Source: Planctomycetota bacterium (lineage in GTDB: Bacteria; Planctomycetota; Phycisphaerae; Phycisphaerales; Phycisphaeraceae). From it: a stretch of 64,000 nt of DNA. This document shows, piece by piece, positions 6,276 through 60,744 of this stretch. The DNA lies in contig JAIOPN010000014.1 in assembly GCA_021413865.1 (NCBI GenBank), forward strand, positions 186,001 to 250,000. The letters are read 5' to 3'. The notes below the pieces were generated by a model. The model searched no databases. It worked only from the letters and a program-made list of their open reading frames with translations, and was not told the origin of the DNA. Position 1 is the first letter of the stretch. Each line of letters opens with the position of its first letter. The position numbers were made by a program, and so were the translations under genes.

Positions 6276-7301
<1,026 letters not shown>

Positions 7302-7898: not shown

Positions 7899-7940
7899 GG
7901 GACGCTCCCGGAGAAAATTCCGAATCTCCTGGTTTGAAAT

Positions 7941-8023: not shown

Positions 8024-8060
8024 GAAATATTTCAAACCAGGACACTACCAAAAAACACAT

Positions 8061-9353: not shown

Positions 9354-9436
9354 TTTGGATTTCGGGTCCGGGATAATGGCCGTCGGATGGATGTAGGATA
9401 AGGTTTGTGGGCGTTAGGCGTCGGCATCATAATCCA

Positions 9437-9562
9437 CCCCCTCTCCCTCCGGGAGAGGGCAGGGGTGAGGGCGTCCGCCGGCCGGTGATCGCGCGTGATT
9501 GCGGACAACCGCCGAAGAAAAACGCCCTCACCCCAACCCTCCCCCGGAGGGGGAGGGGGCCA
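9437..9562. repeat. CCCTCTCCC/GGGAGAGGG repeat pair
   Basis: A hairpin of the type CCCTCTCCCTCCGGGAGAGGG followed by GGGGTGAGGGCG is mirrored at 9521-9562 by CGCCCTCACCCC and a C-rich/G-rich hairpin. Related hairpins are at 14867-14926 and 39022-39058. It fills the divergent gap between hisS and rsmD. Confidence 0.75.
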
Positions 9563-9591
9563 GACCCGGAATCCCGAATCCGAAATTCCCC

Positions 9592-10170
9592 ATGAGAATC
9601 ATCGCAGGCACCCACCGCAGCCGTCTGATCAAGCCCCCGCGCGACCAGGAGACCACCCGGCCGATCACCGACCGGGTGAAGCAGGCGCTCTTCGACCGGC
9701 TGACCATGATGGCGGTCTTCGACGGCGCGGCCGTGGACCTCTTTGCAGGCACGGGCAGCCTCGGGCTCGAGGCGCTCTCGCGCGGCAGCGAGCACTGCAC
9801 CTTCATCGAGCGCGACCGCGACACCCGCAAGGTGCTGGACGACAACATCAAGACGCTCGGCTTCGCCGACCGCGCGGTGGTGATGAGCTCTGACGTGCTC
9901 CTGGGCGTCTGGGTCGCGCAGCTCCCGCACAAGCCGGCGAACCTGATCTTCCTCGACCCCCCCTACGCGATGATGGCCGACGAGGCGGAGGTGAAAAAGA
10001 TCGAGGCCCTGATCGCCCGCCTCGCCGAACACACGCACCCCGAGGGCGTGCTCGTCCTCCGCACCAAGGACGGCGTCACCCCGCCGACGGTCGAGGGCTG
10101 GGAAGGCCCGGCGACGTACAACTACGGGTCGATGTCGGTGCACCTTTATCAACGGCCGGCGGCGAGGTGA
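9592..10170 (+). CDS. rsmD: 16S rRNA (guanine(966)-N(2))-methyltransferase RsmD
   Basis: 192 residues from the ATG of MRIIAGTHRS, the standard RsmD start (MRIIAG, then PTTDRVKEALF-like RPITDRVKQALFDRL). The SAM-binding motif is DLFAGTGSLGLEALSRG (about 49-65) and the catalytic motif IV is LIFLDPPYAMM (DPPY at 122-125). It methylates G966 of 16S rRNA during 30S assembly. The start lies directly after a repeat cluster, and the open frame upstream of it is repeat sequence rather than protein. Confidence 0.93.
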   Translation: MRIIAGTHRSRLIKPPRDQETTRPITDRVKQALFDRLTMMAVFDGAAVDLFAGTGSLGLEALSRGSEHCTFIERDRDTRKVLDDNIKTLGFADRAVVMSSDVLLGVWVAQLPHKPANLIFLDPPYAMMADEAEVKKIEALIARLAEHTHPEGVLVLRTKDGVTPPTVEGWEGPATYNYGSMSVHLYQRPAAR

Positions 10171-10218
10171 ATCTTCCCCTCACATAAACGGTGTTAGACC
10201 ACTGCGCAGGTTTGCACT

Positions 10219-10476
10219 ATGAGAACACTCGCCAAAGCATTGATTGAGACAGCTGTGTTTCTTGAGTTTTCCGGCAGCGACTCCGTCGATCCCGACGATG
10301 CTGTGAGAGCACTGGAAAGCATTGCCCATACGTTACACGCTGCATCTCCCGAGGAGGTTACAGCCATTCGGGAGGCTCTCAAAGAGTTTGTGGACGCCAG
10401 CCAGACCGACTCTGCTCGCGCGGTTGCGCAAAATTTCAGCGACGCATTCTTGGAGAGCATGGGAGAGAAGAAATAG
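10219..10476 (+). CDS. Small hypothetical protein
   Basis: 85 residues, mostly helical, acidic, no signal peptide or membrane segment: MRTLAKALIETAVFLEFSG, a VDPDDAVRALESIAHTL block and a SPEEVTAIREALKEF block. Composition is protein-like and its base content is slightly less GC-rich than its neighbours. No family recognised. The last codons and the stop lie inside a short repeat (10468-10484) that also occurs at 41191-41207, so the C-terminus may have been set by the repeat. Confidence 0.6.
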   Translation: MRTLAKALIETAVFLEFSGSDSVDPDDAVRALESIAHTLHAASPEEVTAIREALKEFVDASQTDSARAVAQNFSDAFLESMGEKK

Positions 10477-10496
10477 GGACGGGAGTTACTATTATT
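10468..10496. repeat. Short repeat AAGAAATAGGGACGGGA, copy 1
   Basis: 17 bp identical to 41191-41207. Here it continues as GTTACTATTATTT, so AAATAG and CTATT(AT)TT form an imperfect palindrome. The layout is REP-like. It overlaps the stop codon of the small gene upstream. Confidence 0.6.
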
Positions 10497-10521
10497 TACC
10501 GTTAGGCGCCAAAACCGCTTT

Positions 10522-11043
10522 ATGAAGAAACGACCCCCATCTGCTTCCAAGTCCACACCGAAAGCAGGCGCGAAGGCCAGGCCGGTGAAACTCCTTGCGG
10601 GCGGCAACCCGCAGATCGCCAAGGCCGATGGCGACGCGCCGGTGCGGGCCTACATCGCGGCGATGCCCGGCTGGAAGAGCGACATCGGAAAACGCCTCGA
10701 CGCGATCATCGTGCGCAGCGTGCCCAATGTGCGCAAGGCCGTGAAGTGGAACTCGCCGTTTTACGGCATCGAGGGCCGGGGCTGGTTCCTGGGGTTCCAC
10801 ACCTTCACGCACTACGTCAAGGTGACCTTCTTCCGCGGCACATCGCTGCGGCCGGCCCCGCCCGGCGGCACGGGCAAGGAAGCGCGCTGGATCGACATCC
10901 ACGAAGACGACCTCGACGAGGCGCAGATGGCGAAGTGGGTGAAGCAGGCGGCCGCGCTGCCCGGGTGGGCGTCGCCCCAATTCCAAAAGGCTTCCTCAAA
11001 AACCAACGGCCTCTCTCCGCCCCGGAGGGGCGCAGGGTTGTAG
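10522..11043 (+). CDS. DUF1801 family protein
   Basis: 173 residues. A Lys/Pro/Ala-rich start (about 1-40) precedes a DUF1801 domain (about 45-150), with APVRAYIAAMPGWKSDI, VRKAVKWNSPFYGIEGRGW and HYVKVTFFRG as recognisable blocks. These small cytoplasmic proteins have no firm biochemical role. The last dozen codons (after ASSKT) and the stop lie in the repeat element that begins at 11037, so the natural C-terminus is probably near residue 150-160. Confidence 0.8.
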   Translation: MKKRPPSASKSTPKAGAKARPVKLLAGGNPQIAKADGDAPVRAYIAAMPGWKSDIGKRLDAIIVRSVPNVRKAVKWNSPFYGIEGRGWFLGFHTFTHYVKVTFFRGTSLRPAPPGGTGKEARWIDIHEDDLDEAQMAKWVKQAAALPGWASPQFQKASSKTNGLSPPRRGAGL

Positions 11044-11250
11044 CCACGGGTGGAGCGCAGCCCGCATCCCCGCGGGCGCAGCGCAACCCGTGGGAAGTGA
11101 TCTCGAAAATATCTTCTCGCCCCGGCAGGGGCGAAGGACGTGCGCCTGTTGACGCTCGTTCCTCCGCCACCTCCGGGGCGGAAGAAAAAACTAACCGCTC
11201 GCTCTCCACGGGTTGCGCGGCGAAGACGCCGCTCCACCCGTGGCTACAAC
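11037..11250. repeat. Inverted repeat element (GCGCAACGC family), copy B
   Basis: Perfect 21-bp terminal arms at 11037-11057 and 11230-11250 (21 of 21 complementary) enclose a 172-bp interior with CCCCGGCAGGGGCG and CTCCGGGGCGG hairpins. It shares the GGAGCGCAGCCCGC ... GGGCGCAGCGCAAC core with the element at 3055-3220. The left arm contains the stop codon of the DUF1801 gene. Confidence 0.8.
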
Positions 11251-11512
11251 CCGCCGCCCCGCCGGGGCGAAAAAAATGCAACACGAGCGTGCAACCCGGC
11301 ACATGACTGACACTTCAGACCGGGACATGGCTGACACTTTTTCTTCTCGCCCGCCCGTGTGGTGCGCGGGTATCGCCCTTTCAGGGCTTGAAAACACAAC
11401 CACGACCGGCTCCCGGAGCGTTGCCCCGGGCTGGTGTGTTTCAGCCCGTTGGGCTGGAGGAGAACTAATGCAAGCTGGGCCGAGTCCTCGACGCTCCGAC
11501 TTAGCCCTGTAA
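11251..11512. repeat. Gene-free repeat-rich gap
   Basis: No gene is seen. It holds two near-identical 19-bp direct repeats with a 24-bp period (11297-11315 and 11321-11339, core ACATGRCTGACACTT, two mismatches) and two small hairpins (GCCCTTTCAGGGC and CAGCCCGTTGGGCTG). It looks like degraded mobile or repetitive DNA and separates the DUF1801 gene from the convergent LptA-like gene. Confidence 0.6.
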
Positions 11513-14500
11513 TCACCTATTCAGCGGGATCACCGCCGGCGAGGGCTGCTCGAACGACGCCTGGTTCTTCAAGAGGTCCCAGCGGATCTCGCGGACGTAC
11601 CGGGCCGTCGGGTCGCGGTCGTCGATGATCTCGACCATCTTGCCCGGGTCGGCCTGGAGGATGATCGTCTGGTCGTCGCCGGTGTACTTCATGTGGTCGG
11701 TGTTGATGGTGCGGTGGTCGGCGAGCAGGCGGACGGAGCGGTCCGCGAGGATGGACTTGATCTTGGGCTGGGGTGAGCTGGCGGAGAACCAGACGCCCAG
11801 GCCGCCGGTGGCCTCCAGGTCGGCCAGCAGGTTCTGGCAGTCGAGCTGCACGACCTCCTGCTTGTTGGGCTCGCGGTGGATCATCTGCACGCGGTCCTGC
11901 ATGAGCATGTCGTTGTGGTAGGCGTCGAGGACGAGCCGGCCCTTCCACTTGAAGAGCGTCGCGCCGCGGCCGGAGAAGTGGACCGGTGAAGCCCCGCCGG
12001 CGGCGGCGGCGGCGGCGGCGCCCGCGGCGGCGGGCTTGCCGTCGGGGCGGTAGTCCTCGAAGAGCATCTGCCCGGGGCTGAGCACCTGCACCTCTTCGCG
12101 CGGCTCCTCGAAGTGCATGTGATCGCCGGTGAGGGTCAGGCGCGTGACGAGCTGGGTCTGGGCTTTGTCCTCCCAGCGCTCGGCCTCGAAGAAGACGTTG
12201 CCCCGCGCGGTGACGGACTGGATGGCGCGGTCGGAGTTGTCCATGCGGTCCCTGAGGCCGTCACCGGCGGCGGGCTTGCCGGCCGGAGCGCCGGCGAGCT
12301 TATCGACGTGCGTGAACTTGAGCCGAAGGTCGTCGCACAGCAGGCGCGAGGCCTGCGTATCGGTGCGCGCCTGGGTGCGGACCCTGCCGGTGAACTGCGC
12401 CAGGCCCACGTCGTCGGCGAAGTGCATGGCCTCGTCCCAGTTGACGATGGCCAGCACGCGCTTGGGGTCGGCGGCGTCCGCGGCGTTGGCGCCGGGCACC
12501 TTGGAGGAGAGGCTCATGAAGGCGAACCGCCCCGGGCCGATGACGTGCACCGAGCGGCTGGCCTGGCCCATGACGATGTGCTCGCCCGAGAGCACGGACT
12601 CGCCGCGCTCGACGCGCGCCGGCTTGTCGGGCAGGCCGAACAGCTCGATCTGGTCCGCCTCGGCGTCCGCATCGAGGCGCATGGCGACAAGGTTCATCGG
12701 CGGGTCCTGCGTCACGATGGTCACGCCCTGGTCGGCGTGCATGTTGCGCACCACGATGCGCCGCTCGCCGGTCGCGCCGGCGTCCAGGGGCATGAGGCCC
12801 TGCTCTTTCTCCGGCGCAGGCCGCGTGGCCGTGACGCCCGCCGCCGGCTTGGCCGCCGCCATCCCCAGGCCGACGTCGAGCGAACCGGTGGTCATCTTCC
12901 GGCCGGGCTGGTCCGCCACGACCGAACCCCGCGCCAGCAGCCGGTGCGGCTCCATCTGGCCGTCCTTGCCGCGCTCCAGCTCGATGACCAACTGGTCGGA
13001 TTTGATCGAGAGCGCCCCCTCGCGCTCGCCCCGGCCGTTGACCACCACGCCGCCGCTGGCGTTGATCGCCTGCACCGACTGCGAGCCCTTGTCGGGGTCG
13101 TCGAGCGAGAGGTTGAGCCGATCGGAATGCACGTCAAAGTCGGGGTGCTGCACGACGACCGCGCCGCGGAACATCACGTCCTTGAGGCCGCGCAGGCGGT
13201 TGACGTCGGAGTTTTTCGCGTCGGCGTGCCGGGGGCGGAGGTAGAAGGAGAGGTCGAGGCGGTCGTTCCACTTGACGCTCATGCCGCGGGGCATCTGCGC
13301 CCCCTGGGCCTTGAGGGTTCCGCGGGGATCGACGGCGTCGGCCAGACCCGGCTCGCCGCGCGCCTTGAGCGTGCCGGCGCCGGGCACCTGACCCATGCCG
13401 GTGCTCTGATCGATCACCAGTTGCGGGCCGCGCAGCACGCCCAGGCTCGGCGAGTCGAGCACGAGCGGGTTGGCCTCGTCGCCGATCAGGCGGATGCGGC
13501 CTGTGCTGCCCAGGTAATCGAAGGTGGCGGCGGTGATGACGTCTTTATTAGCGGTGGTGATGCGGACGGGCTGGCCGACGAGTTCGAGGGCGTAATCGTC
13601 CGGGCCGGTGACGCGGTCGGGCATGGCGTCGAGCGGATCGACGACGAGCGGGCCGGCCCAGGTGATGTTCACGTCGTCCACGCCCGGGGGGGCCATGGAT
13701 TCATCGATAGGGAGCGGCGCGTCGGTGCCGAAGTCCGCGCCGTTGGCGTGATTGGCGATGGTGGGCGCAAGCGGTGCGGGCTTGGGCGCGGGGGCGGGCG
13801 TGGCCGGTTTGGCGGGCGCGGGGGCCGACGGCCTGGTCGCCGCGGGTGCGGGGGCCACGGGTGACGGCGGCGATTGCGGCGAGCCGCCGAGTTTGCCCGC
13901 CTCACGCCGGCTGAGGCAGAACCAGACATTGAGCCGGTCGGCCTCGGCCTCGATGTCGCGGCTGGAGATCGCCACACGCTTATCGAGGCGGCCCGTGTAA
14001 TACTGCGCCTGCCCCGTGCCGGTCCGCTTGGTCGCCGGCTCGCTCTTTGCGTGGGCGGTGGTTGTTTTGCCCGTGCTGTTCTGGGGGCCGTTCTGCGCGG
14101 CGCCCGCGGCGCTCTGTGTCGCCGCCGGCTGTGCGTCGCCGGGCTTGAGCCGCAACTGCCGGCCCTCGATCACCTCGAGGTGCTCGATCCGGCCGCGGGC
14201 CTCGCTGTAGATCATCGTCAGGTCGCGGCCGCGGAAGTCGATCCGGGGGCCGGTCAGGTGCACCGGGCCGCGCGACTCGATCTGGCCCAGCTCCATGTCG
14301 AACTTGGCGTCGAGCAGGAAGACGCGCATGGCCACGTCGGGCGAGTTGGGGGTGAGGTCCACGGCGCGGTCGGCGGGGCCCTCGAAGAGCGTGAGCACGA
14401 CGCGGCCCTTGAAGTCGCCGTTGCGCGGCTGGTTGTCGGGGGCGACGAAGGTGCCGCGCTCGGCGCGGATCTCGATCACGCGCGAGGGTGTCAGGTGGAT

Positions 14501-45099: not shown

Positions 45100-46248
45100 A
45101 TGGTCCGCTCCACTGGCAAACTTCTGACCGCTCTGATGGCGACGGGCATTGTCGCCTCCATGGTTGCCCCCGCTTCCGCGGTGGTCAACATCATCGATAA
45201 CGCCGGAGCTGTCAGCTCCACCGGCACGCCGGGCACCAACGAAAACCGCTGGGTCGTGAACTCGCCGGGCCTGCTGAGCCTGGACAACGGCACGCCCGCC
45301 AGCCTCGCCGGCCGCGTGCTCAAGAACAGCGACGAGACCGCCGGCGGCAACGCCGGCTCCCCCGGCGGCAACGTCGAGCTGGGCATCCTGGACTCAGGTG
45401 CGCAGTCCACCGCCTGGCACGCCGGTGACGCCAGCCTCATCGACACCCTCTCGGGCAAGCTCGGCTCCGCCGACGTGAGCCTCCGCACCGTCACTGCGGT
45501 CGATTGGTTCGGCGCCGACGGCGTCACCGCCTACGGTGACGGCGACGCCGCCAACGCTTGGTTCGGCAGCCTGCTGACCTACTACAATCTCGACGGCACG
45601 ACCACCGCCGCCGAAAAGGCGCTGGTCTTCAACGCCTTCGTCGCCCAGGACGGCTTCTTCCGCCTCTCCGACCCCAACGTCTCTTACGTTCTGCGTGATT
45701 CCAACATCGACACCGACCCCAGCGTCGTCCACGTCGGCCTGGCCGGCGGCGGCAGCGGCCCCGACTCGCCCAACATGAGCACTATCGCCACCGGTGCGGT
45801 CAACGCATACTTTGATGGCTTGGTCGCTCAGGTCAACGCCGCCCTGGCCGCGCAGATCGCCGCGATCAACGCGAACGGCGCGCTCACCCCGCAGCAAAAG
45901 GCGGCCCTCATCGCCCAGGCTCAGGCCGCCGCTGCCGCCCAGATCGCCGCCATCGAGGCTCAGCGCACCGCCACTCTGGCCAAAATCCCCAGCGACCTGG
46001 CCGCCTCCGAAGTCGCCATGTTCTCCTACACCGGTATCTCGCCCCAGCTCATCTACGGCTTCGCCCACACCGCCTCGGGCCTGGCCACCGATGACAACAC
46101 CCGCTCCTACACCCAGAACTTCGACATCCCCATCCAGGTTCCCGGCCAGCCCGGCGAGACGCCGGTCCCCGAGCCCCTCTCAGCCGGCCTGCTGACCCTC
46201 GCCCTCGCGGGTCTGGGTGCCAAGGCCTTCGGCCGCCGCAGCCGCTAA
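45100..46248 (+). CDS. PEP-CTERM-anchored exported protein 1
   Basis: 382 residues, GGGAG upstream of the ATG. Signal peptide to about residue 27. C-terminal sorting tag VPEP, a hydrophobic helix (LLTLALAGLGAKAF) and RRSR, as processed by exosortase. The body is paralogous to the next PEP-CTERM gene: NPGG.N.EL, DWFG, ...FFRLSDPNVSYV..., VHVGLAGG, and a late GFAHTASGLATDDNTRS. It carries an extra Ala/Gln-rich helix (about 240-300, LAAQIAAINANG and QAQAAAAAQIAAIEAQ) that the paralogue lacks. Surface role unknown. Confidence 0.88.
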   Translation: MVRSTGKLLTALMATGIVASMVAPASAVVNIIDNAGAVSSTGTPGTNENRWVVNSPGLLSLDNGTPASLAGRVLKNSDETAGGNAGSPGGNVELGILDSGAQSTAWHAGDASLIDTLSGKLGSADVSLRTVTAVDWFGADGVTAYGDGDAANAWFGSLLTYYNLDGTTTAAEKALVFNAFVAQDGFFRLSDPNVSYVLRDSNIDTDPSVVHVGLAGGGSGPDSPNMSTIATGAVNAYFDGLVAQVNAALAAQIAAINANGALTPQQKAALIAQAQAAAAAQIAAIEAQRTATLAKIPSDLAASEVAMFSYTGISPQLIYGFAHTASGLATDDNTRSYTQNFDIPIQVPGQPGETPVPEPLSAGLLTLALAGLGAKAFGRRSR

Positions 46249-46278
46249 TCACCGACCTCTGAACAACCCGTGCATACC

Positions 46279-46317
46279 CCGAGGCCGTCGGCAACCCCGA
46301 CGGCCTCGGTTGTTTTA
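46279..46317 (+). terminator. Rho-independent terminator after PEP-CTERM gene 1
   Basis: CCGAGGCCGTCGG and CCGACGGCCTCGG form a perfect 13-bp stem (loop CAACC), followed by TTGTTTT. Confidence 0.9.
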
Positions 46318-46399
46318 ATCCGCACCAGGGCCAGAAAAACCGCCTGAACCGATTGCAACGGCCCCAACCGGGGGTACCTATAACATTGGAGAAAAAGCG

Positions 46400-47386
46400 A
46401 TGCGCACCCAATCTATCGTTACAGCCCTGTCCGCCGCCCTCACGATCACCACCGCCGCCCTGGCCGCGGACATCCCCATGACCGGGAGCACGATCGTCAG
46501 CAACCCCTCGGGCTCCACCACCGCCGGGACCAATTACGACCTCTGGAAAGAGACCGCCGGAGTCCTGGCCGTCAACAACGCCGAACCCCTGGCCAACATC
46601 CTCGCCGGCAACGCCGCCGCACCCGGCGGCAACGCCGAACTCTTCGCCAACAGCGAGAACGGCACGTTCAACTCCGTCAGCCCCGTGGGCGCCTTCCGGA
46701 CGACCGCCCGGATCGGCATCTCGGGCACCGTCAACACCAACCCCATCACGGTCAACAGCGTGAACGGCAACGACTGGTTCACCACCTACGGCGGCTCGCC
46801 GGTCTATGACCCTACCTATTCCGCCACGCCCAACACCTTGGCGCGGCAGTGGTTCAAGGATTTCTTCGACTACTACCAGTTCGATGCCGTCCTGGCCGGC
46901 GTGGGCGTCTCCGCGGGGACGATCGCCACCGAGAAGACCAACCTCTACAACAACTTCGCTGCCGCGGGCCAGTTCGCCCGCATCTCCGACCCCAACATCT
47001 CCTACGTCAACATGGACAGCCTCACGACGTACGTCCACGTCGGCCTGGCGGGCAGCCAGTCGTACATCAAGACCTTCATCGTCGCCTACATCGCAGGCTC
47101 CGCGAATCTCACCCCCACCCAGAAGCTCGCGCTGATCGGCAACCCCGTGAACCCCAGCGATGGCATCGTGGACCTGATCGACATCCAGGCCAGCGAGGTC
47201 TTCCAAGCCACCTACAAAGGCGCGACCTACAACCGCTACGGCTTCAAGGGCACCGCCACCGGGCTGACCACGGCGGACGCCACCGAGTCCTTCGGCCTGA
47301 ACTTCGACCTGGTCATCCCCGAGCCGGCATCGCTCTCGCTGATCGCCATGGGCGGCCTGCTCATGCTCTCGCGCCGGCGCCGCTGA
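46400..47386 (+). CDS. PEP-CTERM-anchored exported protein 2
   Basis: 328 residues. Signal peptide to about residue 23. C-terminal sorting tag IPEPASLSLIAMGGLLMLSRRRR. It shares with protein 1 the blocks APGGNAEL, NDWFTTYGG, ARISDPNISYVNMD, VHVGLAGS, LTPTQKLALIGN and YGFKGTATGLTTADATES, so the two are tandem paralogues. It has its own leader after the terminator of gene 1. The stop is 1 bp from the convergent CPBP protease gene. Confidence 0.88.
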   Translation: MRTQSIVTALSAALTITTAALAADIPMTGSTIVSNPSGSTTAGTNYDLWKETAGVLAVNNAEPLANILAGNAAAPGGNAELFANSENGTFNSVSPVGAFRTTARIGISGTVNTNPITVNSVNGNDWFTTYGGSPVYDPTYSATPNTLARQWFKDFFDYYQFDAVLAGVGVSAGTIATEKTNLYNNFAAAGQFARISDPNISYVNMDSLTTYVHVGLAGSQSYIKTFIVAYIAGSANLTPTQKLALIGNPVNPSDGIVDLIDIQASEVFQATYKGATYNRYGFKGTATGLTTADATESFGLNFDLVIPEPASLSLIAMGGLLMLSRRRR

Positions 47387-48862: not shown

Positions 48863-49681
48863 TCACGACATCGACGACTTTACGCCCGGCGCGCTGACGC
48901 GCTGCCCCTCGAGCATGTCGCGCCACTCGGGGCGGATGTTGTTCTTCAGGTCGTCGGAAAAATACGGCCCGTAGTTCGACTCGCGGATGCCCGCCCAGAG
49001 GTACTCCGCGTTGACGTCGGCGAACGATGCGAAATAGACGTAGCGCGGCTGGAGCGTGACGTTATTCGAACCCGAGTGCAGGGCCATGGGGTTGAAGACG
49101 ATCAGGTCGCCGTCGCGGGCCAGCACCTCGATGCCGTTCTTGAGCTCGTCGGCGGCGATGGCGGTAACGTTGCCGTGGAACCTGCGTAGCTCTTCCTTGG
49201 TCGTGAGGTTGGCGGTGCGCTCGTAGTTTTTCTTGTGCGAGCCGGGCACGATGGTGAACGCCGCCCCGCCGGCGGGAACCGTGTTGAGGGCGTGGACGAA
49301 GTGGTAATAGGTCAGCCGGGGACGCGTGAAGTACTGGCTGGGGTGGAACACCTGGTCCACGTGCCAGCCGCCCGCGCCGCGCGGGGCGCTGCAGGGGTCG
49401 GATCGGATCAGAACCTGTTCGAGCAGGCGGAGGCGCGTGCTGCCCAGGATCTCCTGCGCCAGGGCCACGAGGCGGGGCGTGAGCGCTTCGGCCATGATCG
49501 CGCCGGGGATCGGGTGGCGCAGCGTGCGGGTCACGGGATGGGGGTGCATCTGCGGGGGATCGATCGGCGGGAGCAGACTGTCCATGTGTGCCCGCAGCCG
49601 CGCGGTGAAGGCCAGCGGCAGAAAATCACGGAAGACCGTGTAGCCTTCCGCGTCGAGCTGATCGATCTGGGCCGTGTACAT
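48863..49681 (-). CDS. Phytanoyl-CoA dioxygenase (PhyH) family protein 3
   Basis: 272 residues from the ATG at 49681 with GGAG upstream (the longer frame to 49783 is not needed). His-X-Asp pair in GGWHVDQVF, FTIVPGSHKKNY, and a distal His in MALHSGSNNVT with Arg in PRYVYFA. Substrate unknown. Last gene of the left arm of a divergent cluster, 56 bp after a Gfo/Idh/MocA gene. Confidence 0.87.
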   Translation of the reverse strand: MYTAQIDQLDAEGYTVFRDFLPLAFTARLRAHMDSLLPPIDPPQMHPHPVTRTLRHPIPGAIMAEALTPRLVALAQEILGSTRLRLLEQVLIRSDPCSAPRGAGGWHVDQVFHPSQYFTRPRLTYYHFVHALNTVPAGGAAFTIVPGSHKKNYERTANLTTKEELRRFHGNVTAIAADELKNGIEVLARDGDLIVFNPMALHSGSNNVTLQPRYVYFASFADVNAEYLWAGIRESNYGPYFSDDLKNNIRPEWRDMLEGQRVSAPGVKSSMS

Positions 49682-49737
49682 GGCGGGTGCTCCGTGAGGC
49701 GTGGGACTGATTATTGTCGCGATCTGGGCGGATATCT

Positions 49738-50838
49738 CTACCACAACCGCGAATCGGGCACGGACAGCCATATCCCGCCGCACGCGATGGATCGCTGGCT
49801 CACCAGGCCCGGGAGCGTCATGTCCATCGCCGCGTCGATACCGATCGGACTGGGCTTATTCTGACGGATGGCGTCAACGAAGTCGGCAAGCTGGATGAAG
49901 TCCGACCCGCCGTGGCCCGCGCCGGCGGCGGTCGGGCCGTGGCGGCGCCAGAGGTCGGGGAGGAACTCGTCCGCCATCTCATCGAGCGTCCGCCACTCCA
50001 TCTTCCCACCCGATCGGCCGCGCAGCCAGACCTTGCTCGTCGCGCCGTCGATGCCGCTCGTCTCGAACGCGCCGTCCGTCCCCTGCAGCACGAACTTGTG
50101 GCAGCTCGGCCGGTCGGACAAGAAATCCTGCCTGATCTTGATGAGCGAGCCGCGCGTTGTTTTGGCGAGCATGACGCACGTGCTCTCGATCTCATACGCC
50201 CTGCCCTCGTGGTCGGCGTGGCGGTGGCCCGACCCGGCGCAGCTCACGCTCTCCACGCGGTCGCCGGGCATCCACGCCAGCGCGGGGCCCAGGCTGTGCG
50301 TACCGTAGGTGATGCCGTTGACCCCCACCGCCCACTTGCGCCGCCACGGCGTCTTGACGATCAGCGACTTCAGTTCGTGCAGGTACTCCCCCTGGGCGTA
50401 ATACGTCTGGCCGAACATCCCCCGCTTCACCATCTCCGTCACGATCTGCACGTGGCGGAAATAGTTCATGTTCTCCATCATCATGTAGAGCCCGCGCGCC
50501 GAACGGCAGGCCAGGACAAGATCACGGCACTCCTCGATGCTCACCCCGCCGGGCACCTCGCTCATCACGTGCAGCCCGCGGTTGAGCGCCGCGATCGACT
50601 GCGGCGCGTGCAGCGGCATGGGCGTGGCGATGAGCACCGCGTCCAGCTTGGAGCGCTCGATCATCTCGTTAAAATCGGTCCAGCGCTCGACGCCCGGGTG
50701 TTGCGCGACCGCCTTGTCGAGCCGCGCCGGATCGGCGTCGCACAACGCGTGCAGCCGCAAACCATCGAGCCGCAGCCCCGCGAACGCACCGCGTCGCAGG
50801 CCGACGATCCCAAGGTTGATGGATTCGAGTACGGCCAT
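49738..50838 (-). CDS. Gfo/Idh/MocA oxidoreductase A
   Basis: 366 residues. N-terminal Rossmann fold (about 5-125: LGIVGLRRGAFAG, ALCDADPARL, AVLIATPMPLHA), the EVPGG motif near residue 92 as the usual EKP/EVP-type active-site block, and a C-terminal alpha/beta domain. NAD(P)-linked oxidation of a sugar or inositol is the family role. It is a close paralogue of the gene upstream, with a shared C-terminus (TLPGLVSQRSIACGG, then VPDSRLW). Confidence 0.9.
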   Translation of the reverse strand: MAVLESINLGIVGLRRGAFAGLRLDGLRLHALCDADPARLDKAVAQHPGVERWTDFNEMIERSKLDAVLIATPMPLHAPQSIAALNRGLHVMSEVPGGVSIEECRDLVLACRSARGLYMMMENMNYFRHVQIVTEMVKRGMFGQTYYAQGEYLHELKSLIVKTPWRRKWAVGVNGITYGTHSLGPALAWMPGDRVESVSCAGSGHRHADHEGRAYEIESTCVMLAKTTRGSLIKIRQDFLSDRPSCHKFVLQGTDGAFETSGIDGATSKVWLRGRSGGKMEWRTLDEMADEFLPDLWRRHGPTAAGAGHGGSDFIQLADFVDAIRQNKPSPIGIDAAMDMTLPGLVSQRSIACGGIWLSVPDSRLW

Positions 50839-50862
50839 GTTTTATTTCGCCCGACTCATCCA

Positions 50863-51978
50863 TCACCAGAAACGCGAGTCCGGCACCGGCAGCCACTGCC
50901 CGCCGCACATGATGGACTGCTGGCTCACCAGGCCCGGCAGCGTCATGTCCATCGCCTCGTGCACGCCGATCGGGCAGGGGCGCACGCCCTCGATGGCGTC
51001 CACGAAGTCCATCAGCTCCAGCAGGTCGCCGCCGCCGTGGCCCGCCTTCTGTGCCAGCTCGCGGAACTTCACCCAGTTCTCCGGCGTGTAGTCGCCGGCG
51101 ATGTCCGCCAGGTTCTTCCACTCGTGCACCGCCCCCTTGGAGCGCAGCCAGATCTTGTTGATGTCGCCCGGACCGCCGCGCGCCGATTCGTAGCAGCCGT
51201 CCACGCCCTGCAACTGGTAGTTGGTCATCGAGTGCGGCCGGTCGCTGAGCATGTCCACGCGGACCTTAATCAGCCCGCCCCACGTCGTCTTGCCGAGCAT
51301 GACGCAGGACTCCTCGTTCTCGTAGTAATTCCCGCGCGGGTCCTTGTAATGATGGCCCGAGCCGGCGCCGCATACGCTGACCACGCGCTCACCGGGGAAC
51401 CACTGCAAAATCGGCCCGAGGCTGTGCGTGCCGTAGGTAACGCCGTTCACGCCCGTCTGCCACTTGCGCCGCCACTTGGTCACCTCGTTGAGCCCCTTGA
51501 GCTCGTGGATGTATTCGCCCTCGGCGTAGTAGGTCTTGCCGAACTCGCCGCGGCGGACCATCTCCTTGATGACCTGGTTGGACTCCATGTAGGTGTAGTT
51601 CTCGGCCATCATGTAGAGGGCCTTGCTCTTCTTGCACGCCATCACCAGGTCGCGGCACTCCTCGAGGTTCACACCCGCGGGCACCTCGCTGATGGCGTGG
51701 ATGTTCCGCTTGAGCGCCTCAATCGACTGCGGGATGTGCAGCGGCATGGGCGTGCCGATGATGACGGCATCGACGCCCCCCTTGTCGAGCATCTCGGTGT
51801 AGTCGGTGTACTTGCCGGTGACGCCCAGTTCGGCGGCCGCCTTGTCGAGGCCGTCCTTATTGAGGTCGCACACCGCGTGCAGACGCAAACGAGGGATGAC
51901 CTCGACCGAGCGGCGGAAGCTGCCGCCACGGCCGACCGCGCCGACGATGCCGATGTTGATCTTCTCCAACGCGCCCAT
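50863..51978 (-). CDS. Gfo/Idh/MocA oxidoreductase B
   Basis: 371 residues, GGAGAT upstream of the ATG. Rossmann domain (INIGIVGAVGRGGSF, AVCDLNKDGL, AVIIGTPMPLH), EVPAGVNLEECRDLV, and the YAEGEYIHELKG block shared with the paralogue downstream (YAQGEYLHELKS). Ends VPDSRFW. Likely sugar dehydrogenase acting on a partner substrate of the neighbouring PhyH enzyme. First gene of the left arm, 24 bp from oxidoreductase A. Confidence 0.92.
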   Translation of the reverse strand: MGALEKINIGIVGAVGRGGSFRRSVEVIPRLRLHAVCDLNKDGLDKAAAELGVTGKYTDYTEMLDKGGVDAVIIGTPMPLHIPQSIEALKRNIHAISEVPAGVNLEECRDLVMACKKSKALYMMAENYTYMESNQVIKEMVRRGEFGKTYYAEGEYIHELKGLNEVTKWRRKWQTGVNGVTYGTHSLGPILQWFPGERVVSVCGAGSGHHYKDPRGNYYENEESCVMLGKTTWGGLIKVRVDMLSDRPHSMTNYQLQGVDGCYESARGGPGDINKIWLRSKGAVHEWKNLADIAGDYTPENWVKFRELAQKAGHGGGDLLELMDFVDAIEGVRPCPIGVHEAMDMTLPGLVSQQSIMCGGQWLPVPDSRFW

Positions 51979-52083
51979 GGGCGTATCTCCGGGTGATTAG
52001 GGGAGCGACATTGGAAACGCGATCACGCGGGGCGTCAATGTGACGCATCCCCGGTGTACGATGCGTCACCACGGAGATTCCCC
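51979..52083. promoter_or_regulatory. Divergent intergenic region with TGACGC half-sites
   Basis: 105 bp between two divergent Gfo/Idh/MocA genes. It has a perfect palindrome GCGTCA-ATG-TGACGC (52032-52046) and a third site ATGCGTCA (52061-52068) that pairs with TGACGCAT (52041-52048). Three half-sites in this small region suggest a regulator binding site. No regulator gene is adjacent. Both starts have GGAGAT-type ribosome sites. Confidence 0.6.
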
Positions 52084-53343
52084 ATGCCCCAACCCCCACC
52101 CCTCCGCATCGGCGTGCTGGGCACGCGGCGCGGCATCGCGTTCGCCGAGGCGGCCGACCAGTTGCCCGGCCTCGCCCGCGTCACCGGCTTTGTCGGGCGG
52201 GACGCCAAACGCGCCGGCGTGATCCGCCGTCTGTTCCCCAAGGCCCGCATCTACGACAGCTACGAGCAGATGCTCGATGACGACGCGATCGACGCCGTGG
52301 TCGTCGCCAACTACGCCGACGAGCACGCCCCGCCCGCGCTGGCCGCGCTCCGCGCCGGTAAGCACGTGCTCAGCGAGGTCGTCGCCTTCGACACCATCGC
52401 GCAGGGCGTCGAGCTGGCGCGCACGGTCGAGAAAACCGGCAAAATCTATTTCTTCGGCGAGAACTTCTGCTACATGGCGTTCGTGCAGGAGATGCGGCGG
52501 CTGTACGAGAGCGGCGCGCTGGGCGAGGTGCGCTACGCCGAGGGGGAGTACGTCCACTGGGCGCAGGGCGTGATGCACATGCTGGTGGACCTGGACATCC
52601 CCAACCACTGGCGGCTCTGGGTCCCGCCGACGTTTTACTGCACGCACTCGGTCGGGCCGCTCCTGCGCATCACGGGCGAGCGGCCGGTCGCGGTGTCGGC
52701 CTCGGTGGGCGTGATCGCGCTGCCGGGGACGAAGCACCCGCCCGTGCAGACGCCCGCCGTCGAGATCGTGCGACTCGCCAACGGCGCGATCGTCAAGAGC
52801 CTGCACGGCGGGCCCGGGCCGCGTGAGCCGTGGCAGCCCTGGTTCAGCATCGCCGGCTCAAAGGGGTGCATCGAGAGCAACCGCTGGCCCAGCCCCAACC
52901 TCGTCACGCGCTATCTCGACCGTGAGAAACACCCTCGTTCCTACACCGCGAAGTTCACCCGCCTCGCCAAACAGGCCGCGAAGACGCAGCACTGGGGCGC
53001 GGACCTCTTCACGCTCGAACGCTTCGCCCACGCGGCGCGGACCGGCGAAAAACCGGACATCGACGTTTACATGGGGCTGGATATGACGCTCGTGGGCGCG
53101 ATGGGCTGGCGCTCCGTGCTCGCCGGCAGCGCGTGGATGGACATCCCCGATCTCCGCAAGGAATCCGTCCGCAAGAAATGGGAGAGCGACCGCTACTCCT
53201 GCAAGCCCGGCACACCGAAGAAATACCTCCTGCCGAACCACGCGACCACCGGCCGGACGACGCTGCCCGACATGGCCTTCATCAAGACCATCCGCCGCGA
53301 ACAGAAACGCGAGCCGTATTACAAGGCGATGTACCGTGACTGA
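52084..53343 (+). CDS. Gfo/Idh/MocA oxidoreductase C
   Basis: 419 residues from the ATG with GGAG upstream. Rossmann domain (LRIGVLGTRRGIAFAEAA, AVVVANYADEH), then SEVVAFDT at the active-site block, the YAEGEYVHWAQG block, and a longer C-terminus with RKKWESDRYSCKPGTPKKYL. Related to but clearly diverged from the two oxidoreductases on the other strand. First gene of the right arm. Confidence 0.9.
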   Translation: MPQPPPLRIGVLGTRRGIAFAEAADQLPGLARVTGFVGRDAKRAGVIRRLFPKARIYDSYEQMLDDDAIDAVVVANYADEHAPPALAALRAGKHVLSEVVAFDTIAQGVELARTVEKTGKIYFFGENFCYMAFVQEMRRLYESGALGEVRYAEGEYVHWAQGVMHMLVDLDIPNHWRLWVPPTFYCTHSVGPLLRITGERPVAVSASVGVIALPGTKHPPVQTPAVEIVRLANGAIVKSLHGGPGPREPWQPWFSIAGSKGCIESNRWPSPNLVTRYLDREKHPRSYTAKFTRLAKQAAKTQHWGADLFTLERFAHAARTGEKPDIDVYMGLDMTLVGAMGWRSVLAGSAWMDIPDLRKESVRKKWESDRYSCKPGTPKKYLLPNHATTGRTTLPDMAFIKTIRREQKREPYYKAMYRD

Positions 53344-53356
53344 GGACAGGAAACCC

Positions 53357-54229
53357 ATGCCCGCCCCGATCGCCGTGGAACCCGACATCCACTGGACGGA
53401 GCACTTTGCGCGTTATGGTTTCGCCGTCGTGCCGGGGCTGCTCGACCGGGAGTTTTGTGGTGAATGCATCCGCCACATCGCCGCGCTGATCGGGCACAAC
53501 CTGCCCGCGAGCCAGTGGACCAACGACAACACGCCCGTGCTGCACCACCCGTTCTTCGAGGGTGGCAATGCCCCTGAGCCGGTGCTGGAGCGCGTGTTCG
53601 AGCAGCCGCGGCTGCGCGCGGCGATCGAGATCTTGTACGGCGGGCCGGGCCACTGGGACGGGATGAAGAACTACTACCTCTTCCTCAAGCCGCACAACCC
53701 CAAAGGTCGCGCGACGCTGACGAAGCAGGGGCACATCGACTTCGGCAACCAGCGCGTGCCGCCGCTCTACCGCGGGTTCACGTTCCAGGCGCTGCTGCAT
53801 GACAACGAACCGCTCAGCGGCAACCTGACGCTGCACCCGGGCTCGCACCGGACGGTGCAGAAGGTCGTGATGGCGGAGCCGGAGCACCAGTTCAAGAGCG
53901 GGCTGTACGAGGGGGTGCAGCCGCCGCCGTTCGAATTCGTCGGCCGGGCGGGCGACGTCTGCTTCATGCACCACATCGTGCTGCACTCGGGCAACGATTC
54001 GTATTCGCAGAACCGCCTGCCGCGCGTCGCCCTCCACGGCGAGGCGTTCCGCACGAATTGGCTGCGCGAGATCGACCCGGCCAAACCCAACCTCAGCCCG
54101 TGGGAACGCAGCCTCGCCCACAACGGGCCGTACCGTGAGCCGCCCGCCGTCGAGGAGGAGCAGATGATCAAACGACAGAAATATGTTGAAGACCTGAAAA
54201 CCACCGTCTGGCCGCCCAAGCCCAAGTGA
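53357..54229 (+). CDS. Phytanoyl-CoA dioxygenase (PhyH) family protein 4
   Basis: 290 residues from the ATG at 53357 (AGGA upstream); a GTG at 53336 overlaps the previous stop. Fe ligands fit GHIDFGN (His-X-Asp) and the distal His in IVLHSGNDS, with LTLHPGSHRTVQ between. The C-terminus is Pro/Lys-rich. It follows oxidoreductase C by 13 bp, so the two should be co-translated. Confidence 0.87.
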   Translation: MPAPIAVEPDIHWTEHFARYGFAVVPGLLDREFCGECIRHIAALIGHNLPASQWTNDNTPVLHHPFFEGGNAPEPVLERVFEQPRLRAAIEILYGGPGHWDGMKNYYLFLKPHNPKGRATLTKQGHIDFGNQRVPPLYRGFTFQALLHDNEPLSGNLTLHPGSHRTVQKVVMAEPEHQFKSGLYEGVQPPPFEFVGRAGDVCFMHHIVLHSGNDSYSQNRLPRVALHGEAFRTNWLREIDPAKPNLSPWERSLAHNGPYREPPAVEEEQMIKRQKYVEDLKTTVWPPKPK

Positions 54230-54266: not shown

Positions 54267-55160
54267 ATGCCCGACGAAACACCACAACCCGAACACGTGA
54301 TCCAGGTCCGTGACCTGGTCAAGACCTTCGACGGCCGGACCGTGCTGGACGGCATCAACCTCGACGTCCTCTCGGGTGAAACACTCGTCGTCATGGGCGG
54401 CTCGGGCTGCGGCAAGAGCACGCTGCTGCGCCACATGGTCGGCTCCATCAAGCCCGACCGCGGGTCGATCAAGCTGCTGGGCGAGGAGATCACGACCCTC
54501 GAAGAAGAGGGGATGAACGAGATCCGCAAGCAGTTCGGCATCCTGTTCCAGTCCGGGGCGCTCTTCAACTCCATGACGCTGCGGCAGAATGTCGCCCTGC
54601 CGCTGCAGGAGCACACGACGCTCGACGGCGACACGATCGACATCATCGTGAAGATCAAGCTCGAGCTGGTGGGCCTGCGCGAGCACGCCGACAAGTTCCC
54701 TGCGCAGATTTCGGGCGGCATGAAGAAGCGCGCCGGCTTGGCGCGGGCGCTGGCGCTGGACCCGAAAATCCTTTTCTACGACGAGCCCTCCGCCGGCCTC
54801 GACCCCGTCACCAGCGCCGAGATCGACATCCTCATCATGAACCTGTCGCGGCAACTGGGCGTCACCAGCGTCGTGGTCACGCACGAGATGGACTCCGCCT
54901 TTCGCATCGCCGACCGCATGGCGATGCTCGACAAGGGGCGCATGCTCCTCATCGATACCCGCGCCGGCTTTGAGACGCTGCGCGACGCGAAAGGTGAATT
55001 GGACGACACCTCGGGCTTGATCCGCCAGTTCCTGCGCGGCGACCCGGAAGGGCCGATCACGCGCCGCAAGCTCTCGACGGGCTACGCCGACGACCTGCTG
55101 GGCGAGGTGCCCCGCCACCTGCGGCCCCATCCGTCGGTGCAGCCGACGCGTGGGGCGTGA
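54267..55160 (+). CDS. MlaF-type ABC transporter ATP-binding protein
   Basis: 297 residues. Walker A GGSGCGKST (about 45-53), Q-loop FQSGALFNSMT, signature ISGGMKKRAGLARAL, Walker B ILFYDEPSAGLDP and H-loop VVVTHEM. The SGGMKKR signature and FQSGALF loop are those of MlaF, the ATPase of phospholipid/retrograde lipid transport. MlaE, MlaD and MlaB are not adjacent, so it is an orphan in this window. A C-terminal extension of about 45 residues is unusual. Confidence 0.9.
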   Translation: MPDETPQPEHVIQVRDLVKTFDGRTVLDGINLDVLSGETLVVMGGSGCGKSTLLRHMVGSIKPDRGSIKLLGEEITTLEEEGMNEIRKQFGILFQSGALFNSMTLRQNVALPLQEHTTLDGDTIDIIVKIKLELVGLREHADKFPAQISGGMKKRAGLARALALDPKILFYDEPSAGLDPVTSAEIDILIMNLSRQLGVTSVVVTHEMDSAFRIADRMAMLDKGRMLLIDTRAGFETLRDAKGELDDTSGLIRQFLRGDPEGPITRRKLSTGYADDLLGEVPRHLRPHPSVQPTRGA

Positions 55161-56460: not shown

Positions 56461-57684
56461 ATGAAGCCCAAGACGCTCCTGATCATCAGCCAGGTGTATG
56501 TGCCCGACCCCGCGTCGGTGGGGCAACACCTCGCCGACAGCGCCGCCGAGATGGTGTCGCGCGGCTGGCGCGTCGTCGTCATCACGTCGCGACGGGGGTA
56601 CGACGACCCCTCGGTGCGCTACGCCCCGCGCGATGTGATCAACGGTGTCGAGATCGTCCGCCTGCCGCTCTCATCGTTCGGCAAAAAATCGATCCCCGTA
56701 CGGCTGATCGGCGGGGTGATGTTCCTGCTGCAGGCGTTCCTGCGCGGGCTGTTCACGCCGGGCCTGAGCGAGATATTCGTGAGCACCTCTCCACCGATGT
56801 GCCCGCCGGTCGCGGTGTTGATCGGCAAGCTCCGTCGCGTGCCCGTGGTGTACTGGGCGATGGACCTCAACCCCGACCAGATGATCATGCTGGGCGCGAT
56901 CACGAAGGATTCCCTGCCGGCGCGGGTGTTTAACCTGTTCAACCGCATCATCCTGCGGAACGCCAAGGCCGTCATCACCCTGGACCGCTTCATGGCCCAG
57001 CGGCTCAACGACAAGGTCCCCGTGGGCAACAGGATGGCGGTCTTCCCGCCCTGGGCGCACGAGGATCACCTGGCGGTGGTGCGGCACGCGGACAACCCCT
57101 TCCGCAAGGCGCATAAGCTCGAAGACAAGTTTGTGTTCATGTACAGCGGAAACATGAGCATCGCCTCGCCGCTCACCACGGTGCTGGCGGCGGCGGAAAA
57201 ATTGCGCGACGACCCGCGCATCGTCTTCATGTTCATCGGCGGCGGGTTAGGAAAAAAAGTGGTCGAGGCGGCGATCCGCGACAAGGGGCTGACCAATGCG
57301 CGCCTGCTGCCTTATCAACCGATCGATCAGCTCAAGAACTCGCTCTCGGCGGCGGACGTGCACCTGGTCGCGCTTGGCGATGCGATGGTTGGCGTGATCC
57401 ATCCCTGCAAGATCTACGGCGCGATGGCGGTGGCGCGGCCTGTGCTGATGTTTGGCCCGGCGCCCAGCCACCTGTCGGAACTGATCGACTCGGGGCGGAT
57501 CGGCTGGCGCGTGAGCCACGGGGATACCGAGACGGCGACAAGGGTCATCCGTGAGATCGCGACGCTGCCTGCGGCCGAGCTGGAAACGATGGGCGGTCGC
57601 GCCAAGGCCATGCTGACCGAGCGGTACAGCCGGTCGAAACTGCTGGGGCAGTTGGGGGACGCGCTGGAGGGTGCGGCGGGCTGA
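56461..57684 (+). CDS. Glycosyltransferase family 4 (WbuB-like)
   Basis: 407 residues. N-terminal Rossmann-like domain (LLIISQVYVPDPASVGQH), a hydrophobic stretch (about 78-100), and a C-terminal GT-B domain with FVFMYSGNMSIASPLTTVL, MFIGGGLGK and the IYGAMAVARPVLMFGPAPS block that holds the sugar nucleotide. Retaining glycosyltransferase for polysaccharide assembly, donor not known. Transcribed towards the Wzy-like gene. Confidence 0.88.
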   Translation: MKPKTLLIISQVYVPDPASVGQHLADSAAEMVSRGWRVVVITSRRGYDDPSVRYAPRDVINGVEIVRLPLSSFGKKSIPVRLIGGVMFLLQAFLRGLFTPGLSEIFVSTSPPMCPPVAVLIGKLRRVPVVYWAMDLNPDQMIMLGAITKDSLPARVFNLFNRIILRNAKAVITLDRFMAQRLNDKVPVGNRMAVFPPWAHEDHLAVVRHADNPFRKAHKLEDKFVFMYSGNMSIASPLTTVLAAAEKLRDDPRIVFMFIGGGLGKKVVEAAIRDKGLTNARLLPYQPIDQLKNSLSAADVHLVALGDAMVGVIHPCKIYGAMAVARPVLMFGPAPSHLSELIDSGRIGWRVSHGDTETATRVIREIATLPAAELETMGGRAKAMLTERYSRSKLLGQLGDALEGAAG

Positions 57685-59502: not shown

Positions 59503-60744
59503 ATGACGACACCCACTCCCGCACCACGCTGGATAGTCGCCCAGATCGGCTCCCGCGAGCACTACGCCGTGCCCCGCGCGTTCCACCGCAGAGGACACCT
59601 CCATACGCTCTACACCGACGCATGGATCGGCGCGGGCGCGGGTCTCCTCCGCCGCGGCCCGAAGCGGCTGCGCGGCCTGGCGGGCAGGCACCACCCCGAA
59701 ATCCCCTCACGCCTTGTCTGCGCCCTGACTTTCCGCGCCATGCTCACCGGCGCGACCTTCGCCCTGCGTAAACCAACCTCCACCCCCGAGCAGTTCCGGG
59801 CCTACCTCCGCACCGGCGAACGGTTCGCCGCCGACGTGCGGCGACGCCTCGAACACTCCACGCTCGACCCGGCCCTCGACGCCTACTTCGGTTACGACAC
59901 CGGCTGCCTCGAAACCCTCCAACTCCTCCGCGAACGCTCCGTCGTCAGCGTCGTGGACCAGATCGACCCCGCGCGAACCGAGGAACAACTTGTCTTCGAG
60001 GAGTCGCAGCGCTGGCCCGGCTGGCAGGCGGTCCCCGGCCGCATCCCCGACGATTACTACCAGCGGCTCTCCGCCGAGTGGGACCTGGCAAGCCTCGTGC
60101 TGGTCAATTCCGACTGGTCCCGCGATGCCCTGGTGAAACAGGGCGTGCCGATGGGGAAGATCATCGTCGTGCCGCTGGCGTACGAGCCCTCGGCCGCCGA
60201 GCCGCCCGTGCGAAAAAACAGCGACCGACCGATCACCGTGCTCTGGCTGGGCAGCGTGATCCTCCGCAAGGGCATCCAGTACCTGATCGAGGCGGCGCGA
60301 CGCCTGACGGACACAAAGGTGCGCTTCGTCGTCGCCGGCCCGGTGCAGATCGCACAGAAAGTGGTGGGCGACGCCCCGAACAACATGGAGTTCATCGGCC
60401 GGGTGACGCGCGACCGCATCGAGGCGGTGTACCGCGCCGCCGACGTCTTCGTGCTGCCGACGCTGTCGGACGGCTTTGCGATCACTCAGCTCGAGGCGAT
60501 GGCGCAGGGGCTGCCGGTGATCGCCACGCCCAATTGCGGCCGCGTGGTGGAGGACGGGGTGGATGGCCTGATCGTGCCGGCGGGCGACGCGGAGTCCCTG
60601 GCCCGCGCGGTGGCGGGGCTCGACCAAGACCGCGCCTTGCTCTCGGAAATGTCCCGCCGGGCGATCGAAAAATCCCGGCAATTCACGCTCGAACGCTATG
60701 CCGACACCCTGGAATCCGCCGTCCGCCCGCTCATGCGCAAGTGA
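59503..60744 (+). CDS. Glycosyltransferase family 4
   Basis: 413 residues. GT-B fold with a variable N-terminal half (IVAQIGSREHYAVPRAFH) and a clear C-terminal half: VLWLGSVILRKGIQYLIEAAR, EFIGRVTRDRIEAVYRAADV, and FVLPTLSDGFAITQLEAMA with GLPVIATPNCG, the family's donor-binding E-x7-E region. It starts 19 bp after the Wzy-like gene, so co-expression is likely. Confidence 0.9.
   Translation: MTTPTPAPRWIVAQIGSREHYAVPRAFHRRGHLHTLYTDAWIGAGAGLLRRGPKRLRGLAGRHHPEIPSRLVCALTFRAMLTGATFALRKPTSTPEQFRAYLRTGERFAADVRRRLEHSTLDPALDAYFGYDTGCLETLQLLRERSVVSVVDQIDPARTEEQLVFEESQRWPGWQAVPGRIPDDYYQRLSAEWDLASLVLVNSDWSRDALVKQGVPMGKIIVVPLAYEPSAAEPPVRKNSDRPITVLWLGSVILRKGIQYLIEAARRLTDTKVRFVVAGPVQIAQKVVGDAPNNMEFIGRVTRDRIEAVYRAADVFVLPTLSDGFAITQLEAMAQGLPVIATPNCGRVVEDGVDGLIVPAGDAESLARAVAGLDQDRALLSEMSRRAIEKSRQFTLERYADTLESAVRPLMRK

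What the first reader, a model, noticed from the sequence alone, without database searches (positions are those of the whole stretch)
48863..54229. Mirror-image divergent cluster of Gfo/Idh/MocA and PhyH genes
The left arm runs oxidoreductase B, oxidoreductase A, PhyH 3; the right arm runs oxidoreductase C, PhyH 4. Each arm pairs NAD-linked sugar-type oxidoreductases with an Fe/2-oxoglutarate dioxygenase. Tight spacing (13-56 bp) implies co-expression. A combined dioxygenase plus sugar dehydrogenase route on an unusual sugar or inositol is possible; I know of no named pathway that fits.
Basis: partly seen in the sequence, partly recalled or inferred. Interest (0 to 1): 0.6.

Follow-up and report, generated by a model that had tools for sequence, protein, structure and literature searches.

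The report
Sugar-enzyme and PhyH gene cluster
Five neighbouring genes, reading outward in both directions from a shared 105-base gap, encode three NAD-dependent sugar-processing enzymes and two iron/2-oxoglutarate oxygenases; the genes are real and probably help break down an unusual sugar, but the grouping as a whole was not found in related genomes and both families are very numerous in this genome.

Summary
Five intact genes run PhyH3 < GIM-B < GIM-A | 105-bp gap | GIM-C > PhyH4, with gaps of 56, 24 and 13 bp. The "mirror image" exists only at family level: A and B are an old, diverged tandem pair (55% identical), C is 27-28% identical to them, and PhyH3 and PhyH4 do not match by BLASTP. 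A and B (and by profile C) are not ordinary sugar dehydrogenases: they belong to the GH109-like branch (NAD-dependent, redox-neutral glycosidases), with GH109's catalytic histidine motif and EV[P/V] in place of EKP. Both PhyH proteins keep the Fe(II)/2-oxoglutarate residues. A-type genes elsewhere sit in sugar-catabolic operons, and one such operon carries a C-side relative. PhyH3 relatives sit beside AraC or LacI regulators and a GIM gene. The five-gene unit was not recovered elsewhere. The genome holds 108 PhyH and 48 GIM genes, so PhyH-GIM adjacency alone is only weakly above chance (8 against 2.9 expected), although a mixed run of five is not (simulated P = 0.0005). Most likely this is a carbohydrate-catabolic cluster with an unknown substrate. 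The PhyH expansion is the more striking feature.

The parts
48863..49681 (-). PhyH3, Fe(II)/2-oxoglutarate oxygenase of the PhyH family (272 aa; HxD H107/D109, distal H202, R213)
   Evidence: PF05721 58.2 bits, cut-off 22; start from codon-usage gene calling; residues invariant in the relatives of G312 and G322
49738..50838 (-). GIM-B, GH109-like Gfo/Idh/MocA protein (366 aa), fast-evolving sister of GIM-A
   Evidence: PF01408 58.7 and PF21252 (GH109 C-terminal) 51.5 bits; tree, sister to A 94/89
50863..51978 (-). GIM-A, GH109-like Gfo/Idh/MocA protein (371 aa; E98-V99-P100, Y182-x-T-H185-S-L-G-P)
   Evidence: PF01408 63.0 and PF21252 45.9 bits; PDB profile best hits GH109 6t2b/2ixa; AF2 model pLDDT 84.8, Foldseek best 6t2b
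51979..52083 (.). 105-bp divergent intergenic region between the two arms
   Evidence: sequence; no sigma-70-like site found by the consensus scan
52040..52069 (.). perfect 10-bp inverted repeat (GTGACGCATC-N10-GATGCGTCAC), candidate operator or 5'-UTR hairpin
   Evidence: only copy in the genome; at least one such repeat in 9 of 3000 shuffles of the gap; function untested
52084..53343 (+). GIM-C, divergent GH109-like Gfo/Idh/MocA protein (419 aa)
   Evidence: PF01408 53.6 bits; PF21252 not hit; alignment profile matches GH109 2ixa at 2.9e-46; nearest relative 60% identical in a MAG labelled Chloroflexi
53357..54229 (+). PhyH4, divergent PhyH-family oxygenase (290 aa; H126-x-D128, distal H210, R220/R223)
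   Evidence: PF05721 24.0 bits, cut-off 22; residues invariant among 7 relatives; own-genome paralogues on C7, C27, C4 and C33
54267..55160 (+). MlaF-like ABC ATPase 37 bp downstream of PhyH4, possibly co-transcribed, probably unrelated in function
   Evidence: PF00005 106.8 bits; MlaF model 208 bits, below its cut-off of 441

Best explanation
A carbohydrate-catabolic cluster expressed from a divergent promoter region. GIM-A, -B and -C are GH109-like enzymes that hold NAD, oxidise a sugar C3-OH, deprotonate C2, eliminate or add at C1 and re-reduce, so they cleave or rearrange glycosides without net redox change. PhyH3 and PhyH4 are Fe(II)/2-oxoglutarate oxygenases that hydroxylate a C-H bond of the same kind of substrate, for example removing an O-methyl group, so the sugar can enter oxidative catabolism (lactonase, sugar-acid dehydratase, SDR) encoded elsewhere in the genome. 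Shown: families, intact catalytic residues, gene layout, and sugar-operon context of A-type and C-side relatives. Inferred: the GH109-type reaction, action of the PhyH proteins on sugar, joint operation of the two arms, and the promoter. Unknown: the substrate.
For: Pfam GH109_C on A and B. Profiles of the A/B and C alignments hit GH109 structures over their full length (2.5e-49 and 2.9e-46), while ordinary dehydrogenases score about 1e-23 or worse; Foldseek ranks GH109 6t2b first, TM-score 0.85. The histidine of Y-x-T-H-x-x-G-P, whose mutation inactivates the Spirosoma GH109 (H225A, PMC6521355), is invariant in A, B, C and relatives. A orthologues lie in an aminotransferase / sugar-acid dehydratase / SDR / ceramidase-like / GIM-A / SMP-30 lactonase operon in G322, with part of it in G381, and beside a sugar isomerase and kinase in G209. 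The homologous operon in G116 carries a C-side GIM, with a PhyH gene 1.9 kb on. This genome holds that dehydratase (78% identical) and ceramidase-like gene on contig C41. PhyH3 relatives sit beside AraC in both genomes, with LacI and a GIM gene in one and a weaker GIM hit nearby in the other. PhyH enzymes can demethylate a ribose 2'-O-methyl group (PMC12709175).
Against: No orthologous five-gene unit was recovered. A, PhyH3 and PhyH4 relatives in other genomes mostly lie on separate contigs. The genome is so rich in PhyH that PhyH genes show no GIM enrichment in a 61-tile sample (4 against 2.9 expected). The G116 operon's GIM branches with the C28 pair, not with GIM-C itself. The SMP-30 neighbours would also fit a plain sugar 1-dehydrogenase. 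No transporter or dedicated regulator lies in the cluster.
Confidence: 0.45

Rival explanations
1. Coincidental neighbourhood: two hugely expanded families happen to lie together, and the two arms (or each PhyH and its GIM neighbour) serve unrelated pathways.
For: 108 PhyH and 48 GIM genes; adjacency only 8 against 2.9 expected, P = 0.067 without this window; no GIM enrichment near PhyH in the tile sample; the specific unit was not recovered elsewhere.
Against: A mixed run of five is unlikely by chance (P = 0.0005); 13-56 bp spacing; PhyH/GIM groupings recur in own contig C28, G007, G279 and G312.
Confidence: 0.3
2. GIM-A, -B and -C are net sugar 1-dehydrogenases that make lactones, the first step of an oxidative sugar-acid pathway, and the PhyH proteins trim a substituent.
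For: GIM-A is directly followed by an SMP-30 lactonase, and lies near a galactonate-dehydratase-like enzyme and an SDR, in G322; a lactonase follows it in G381.
Against: The lysine of the dehydrogenase EKP motif is absent in all A/B/C relatives, as in GH109; those operons already hold an SDR that could be the dehydrogenase.
Confidence: 0.2
3. The cluster makes rather than degrades a modified sugar, for example a decorated surface polysaccharide, since glycosyltransferase-like genes lie just to the right.
For: The right flank holds a weak exostosin-like hit and two ORFs that look like glycosyltransferases by eye (56461-57684, 59503-60744, not searched).
Against: A-type and C-side relatives sit in catabolic operons; NDP-sugar dehydrogenases such as WlbA score far below GH109.
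Confidence: 0.05

Closest known systems
GH109 NAD-dependent glycosidases (E. meningoseptica alpha-N-acetylgalactosaminidase 2IXA; Akkermansia GH109 6T2B)
   Same: Full-length profile match, top fold match, EV[PS] instead of EKP, Y-x-T-H-x-x-G-P histidine, GHGGxD motif
   Different: 22-28% structure-aligned identity; most relatives of A lie in sugar-acid or isomerase/kinase contexts; GIM-C fails the Pfam GH109_C model; no evidence for N-acetyl sugar substrates
PhyH-family Fe(II)/2OG oxygenases (EctD, phytanoyl-CoA hydroxylase, PHYHD1/FJS 2'-O-methyl-nucleoside demethylases)
   Same: PF05721 domain and HxD...H plus Arg residues
   Different: No close solved relative: weak profile hits to EctD only (5e-7 for PhyH3, 8e-4 for PhyH4); substrate unknown
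Oxidative deoxysugar/sugar-acid pathways (L-rhamnose/L-fucose diketo-hydrolase type)
   Same: Relatives' operons hold dehydratase, SDR, SMP-30 lactonase and, in G116, a 2,4-didehydro-3-deoxyrhamnonate-hydrolase-like FAH protein
   Different: The window has none of these; in this genome the dehydratase is on another contig
Poribacterial PhyH expansion (Kamke et al. 2014, PMC3909097)
   Same: Very high PhyH copy number, about 3% of genes here against >1.9% there
   Different: Different lineage; that paper reports phosphonate-use neighbours and does not describe GIM pairing in the passages read

Membership tests
GH109 (CAZy) | Gfo/Idh/MocA Rossmann domain plus GH109 C-terminal domain over Pfam cut-off | tested here: met
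   A and B meet PF01408 and PF21252; C meets PF01408 but not PF21252
GH109 (CAZy) | Catalytic histidine in Y-P/x-T-H-x-x-G-P | tested here: met
   Invariant in A, B, C and relatives; required for activity in Spirosoma GH109 (PMC6521355)
GH109 (CAZy) | NAD-dependent glycosidase activity on GalNAc or related glycosides | not testable with these tools
   needs purified enzyme
Gfo/Idh/MocA dehydrogenases (IolG type) | EKP lysine motif and IolG equivalog score | tested here: not met
   EVP/EVP/EVV in A/B/C; IolG model 53.6, 67.5 and 38.6 bits for B, A and C against a cut-off of 355
PhyH (PF05721) | Domain over gathering score | tested here: met
   PhyH3 58.2 and PhyH4 24.0 bits against 22
PhyH (PF05721) | 2-His-1-carboxylate iron site and 2OG-binding Arg | tested here: met
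   H107, D109, H202, R213 in PhyH3; H126, D128, H210, R220/R223 in PhyH4, invariant in relatives
[quoted passage not shown]
   no FJS sequence was compared; activity needs an assay
Conserved PhyH-GIM operon | Same orthologues adjacent in other genomes | tested here: not met

The most novel reading that the evidence does not exclude
An oxygen-dependent glycoside-processing module in a PhyH-expanded lineage: Fe/2OG PhyH oxygenases strip or hydroxylate substituents (such as O-methyl) on a decorated sugar so that GH109-like NAD-dependent enzymes can cleave it. This would explain why these genomes carry tens to over a hundred PhyH genes, some beside sugar-catabolic genes.
Probability: 0.22. Interest if true: 0.65.

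Novelty: new member of a known kind. Interest (0 to 1): 0.36.

Why it matters
PhyH genes reach about 3% of this genome and their substrates are almost all unknown. A cluster that ties two of them to GH109-like enzymes whose relatives lie in sugar-acid operons gives a concrete, testable guess (decorated sugars) for what such an expansion does. It also warns that Gfo/Idh/MocA genes without the EKP lysine should be annotated as GH109-like glycoside-processing enzymes rather than as inositol or sugar dehydrogenases.

Tried and rejected
Inositol/IolG reading: scores far below cut-off. Inverted duplication as the cause of the mirror: rejected, C is 27-28% identical to A/B and PhyH3/PhyH4 do not match by BLASTP. 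Foreign island by composition: GC 0.64-0.69 across the cluster, like its flanks. Sigma-70 promoters: none found, but the scan is uninformative at this GC. AlphaFold of PhyH3 failed (pLDDT 40, three-sequence alignment) and was not used. One region request failed for being one base too long and was repeated. PhyH-neighbour enrichment for sulfatase, SDR, sugar isomerase and MR_MLE: nothing significant, only PhyH-PhyH tandem clustering (14 against 5.2). In that run the AraC, LacI and FAH models found no members at all, so those three are not evidence of absence.

Full report
What is there. The five genes exist as described. Gene calling trained on the window gives PhyH3 48863-49681(-), GIM-B 49738-50838(-), GIM-A 50863-51978(-), GIM-C 52084-53343(+) and PhyH4 53357-54229(+), with gaps of 56, 24, 105 (divergent) and 13 bp. 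PhyH3 ends 3 bp from the end of a convergent RF-1/ArfB-like gene. An MlaF-like ABC ATPase follows PhyH4 after 37 bp and could be a third gene of the right arm. The window is 64 kb of a 4.37-Mb, 67-contig genome.

Is the mirror real? Only in family names. A and B are 55% identical and sister in a tree (94/89), with B on a long branch. C is 27-28% identical to them and its closest relative is in a MAG labelled Chloroflexi (60%). PhyH3 and PhyH4 do not match each other by BLASTP. This is an assembly of different subfamilies, not an inverted duplication.

Chance. The genome has 108 PhyH and 48 Gfo/Idh/MocA domains in about 3,644 genes (1.2 kb per gene). Random placement gives 2.9 direct PhyH-GIM adjacencies; I counted 8: two here and one each on C11, C14, C27, C28, C55 and near C4:153 kb. 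P is 0.007 with this window and 0.067 without it. A mixed run of five has P = 0.0005. In a 61-tile sample PhyH neighbours are not enriched for GIM. So the run is unusual, but pairing as such is only weakly above background.

What the oxidoreductases are. Pfam's GH109 C-terminal model hits A and B. Profiles of the A/B family and of the mixed C/A/B alignment find GH109 structures (6t2b, 2ixa) over their full length at 1e-45 to 1e-49, about 20 orders of magnitude ahead of true dehydrogenases. The GIM-A model (pLDDT 84.8) matches 6t2b best (TM-score 0.85). The EKP lysine seen in WlbA and DgpA is replaced by V (T or C in some C-side relatives), as V in GH109, and the GH109 histidine in Y-x-T-H-x-x-G-P is invariant. 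Mutating that histidine inactivates the Spirosoma GH109, and the mechanism described is C3 oxidation, C2 deprotonation, elimination, hydration and re-reduction on tightly bound NAD (PMC6521355). GH109-type chemistry is therefore the best guess for A and B, and likely for C. Activity is not shown.

What the PhyH proteins are. Both keep the HxD...H iron site and the arginine, invariant in relatives. They are remote from solved structures. PhyH enzymes in general hydroxylate C-H bonds, and some from bacteria (Poribacteria among them) and eukaryotes demethylate ribose 2'-O-methyl groups (PMC12709175). That makes sugar O-demethylation possible, but it is not evidence for it here.

Context of relatives. 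GIM-A orthologues (57-66%) occur patchily (13 other genomes of 392 have a match at E <= 1e-50). In G322 the gene sits in an operon of class-III aminotransferase, galactonate-dehydratase-like enolase-superfamily enzyme, SDR, ceramidase-like protein, GIM-A and SMP-30 lactonase, with IclR nearby; G381 keeps the GIM-A-lactonase pair. In G209 it follows an arabinose-isomerase-like gene and a kinase; in G208 and G225 a GH38 mannosidase and a pectate-lyase-like gene lie close. In G116 the homologous operon (dehydratase 71%, aminotransferase 50%, SDR 42%, ceramidase-like 37%, lactonase 33% identical to G322) carries instead a GIM of the C side (42% to GIM-C, though it branches with the C28 pair), then an AraC gene and a PhyH gene. 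This genome has the same dehydratase (78%) and ceramidase-like protein on contig C41. PhyH3 relatives exist only in G312 and G322 of those searched; both have a divergent AraC gene, G312 has LacI then a GIM gene downstream, and G322 has a weaker GIM hit nearby. On own contig C52 a PhyH lies between a sugar-acid dehydratase and an SDR.

Conservation of the unit. No locus with the whole arrangement was recovered. Analogous groupings occur: own contig C28 (two C-side GIMs divergent from a PhyH, then two more PhyH, an unannotated protein and a xylose-isomerase-like protein), G007 (a C-side GIM divergent from PhyH) and G279 (PhyH, GIM-A and another GIM on one strand). Absence is not proven, since many genomes are fragmented and each search scored only the best few candidates per genome.

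Regulation. The 105-bp gap holds a perfect 10-bp inverted repeat (52040-52049/52060-52069), the only copy of its sequence in the genome; 9 of 3000 shuffles of the gap contain any repeat of that kind. It could be an operator or a 5'-UTR hairpin of GIM-C. Co-expression remains untested.

Verdict. Real genes, sugar-related by context, function unproven. The named families are known, so this is a new member of a known kind. The strongest general point is the PhyH load: about 3% of genes, compared with more than 1.9% in Poribacteria, which were the extreme case in 2013 (PMC3909097).

Noticed in passing
whole genome G000 (window = C4:186001-250000): 108 PhyH-domain genes in 4.37 Mb (about 3% of genes), with significant tandem clustering (14 PhyH neighbours of PhyH against 5.2 expected); some same-family genomes are also rich (G017, G025, G031) and others have none.
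   Followed up: partly
52040-52069: Perfect 10-bp inverted repeat with 10-bp spacer in the divergent gap, unique in the genome; possible operator.
   Followed up: partly
L118 (G000:C52) 4603-8135: Sugar-acid dehydratase, PhyH and SDR on one strand, with a sulfatase-like ORF (named by eye) nearby: another hint that PhyH genes serve sugar catabolism.
   Followed up: no
L028 (G000:C28) 6022-13842: Second GIM-GIM divergent from PhyH cluster with two further PhyH genes and a xylose-isomerase-like protein; one GIM has a sister in G007 (L032), which also sits divergent from a PhyH.
   Followed up: partly
L027 5977-12092: Closest GIM-C relative (60%) in a MAG labelled Chloroflexi, in a cluster with URO-D/MtaA-type methyltransferase-like proteins, a GH4 NAD-dependent glycosidase and a LarA-type racemase; possibly a methylated-sugar context without PhyH.
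   Followed up: partly
54267-55160: Lone MlaF-like ATPase directly behind PhyH4; no MlaE or MlaD partner was noticed in the flanking genes (not searched).
   Followed up: no
45100-47386: Two secreted proteins with PEP-CTERM-like ends (by eye) in tandem upstream of the cluster.
   Followed up: no
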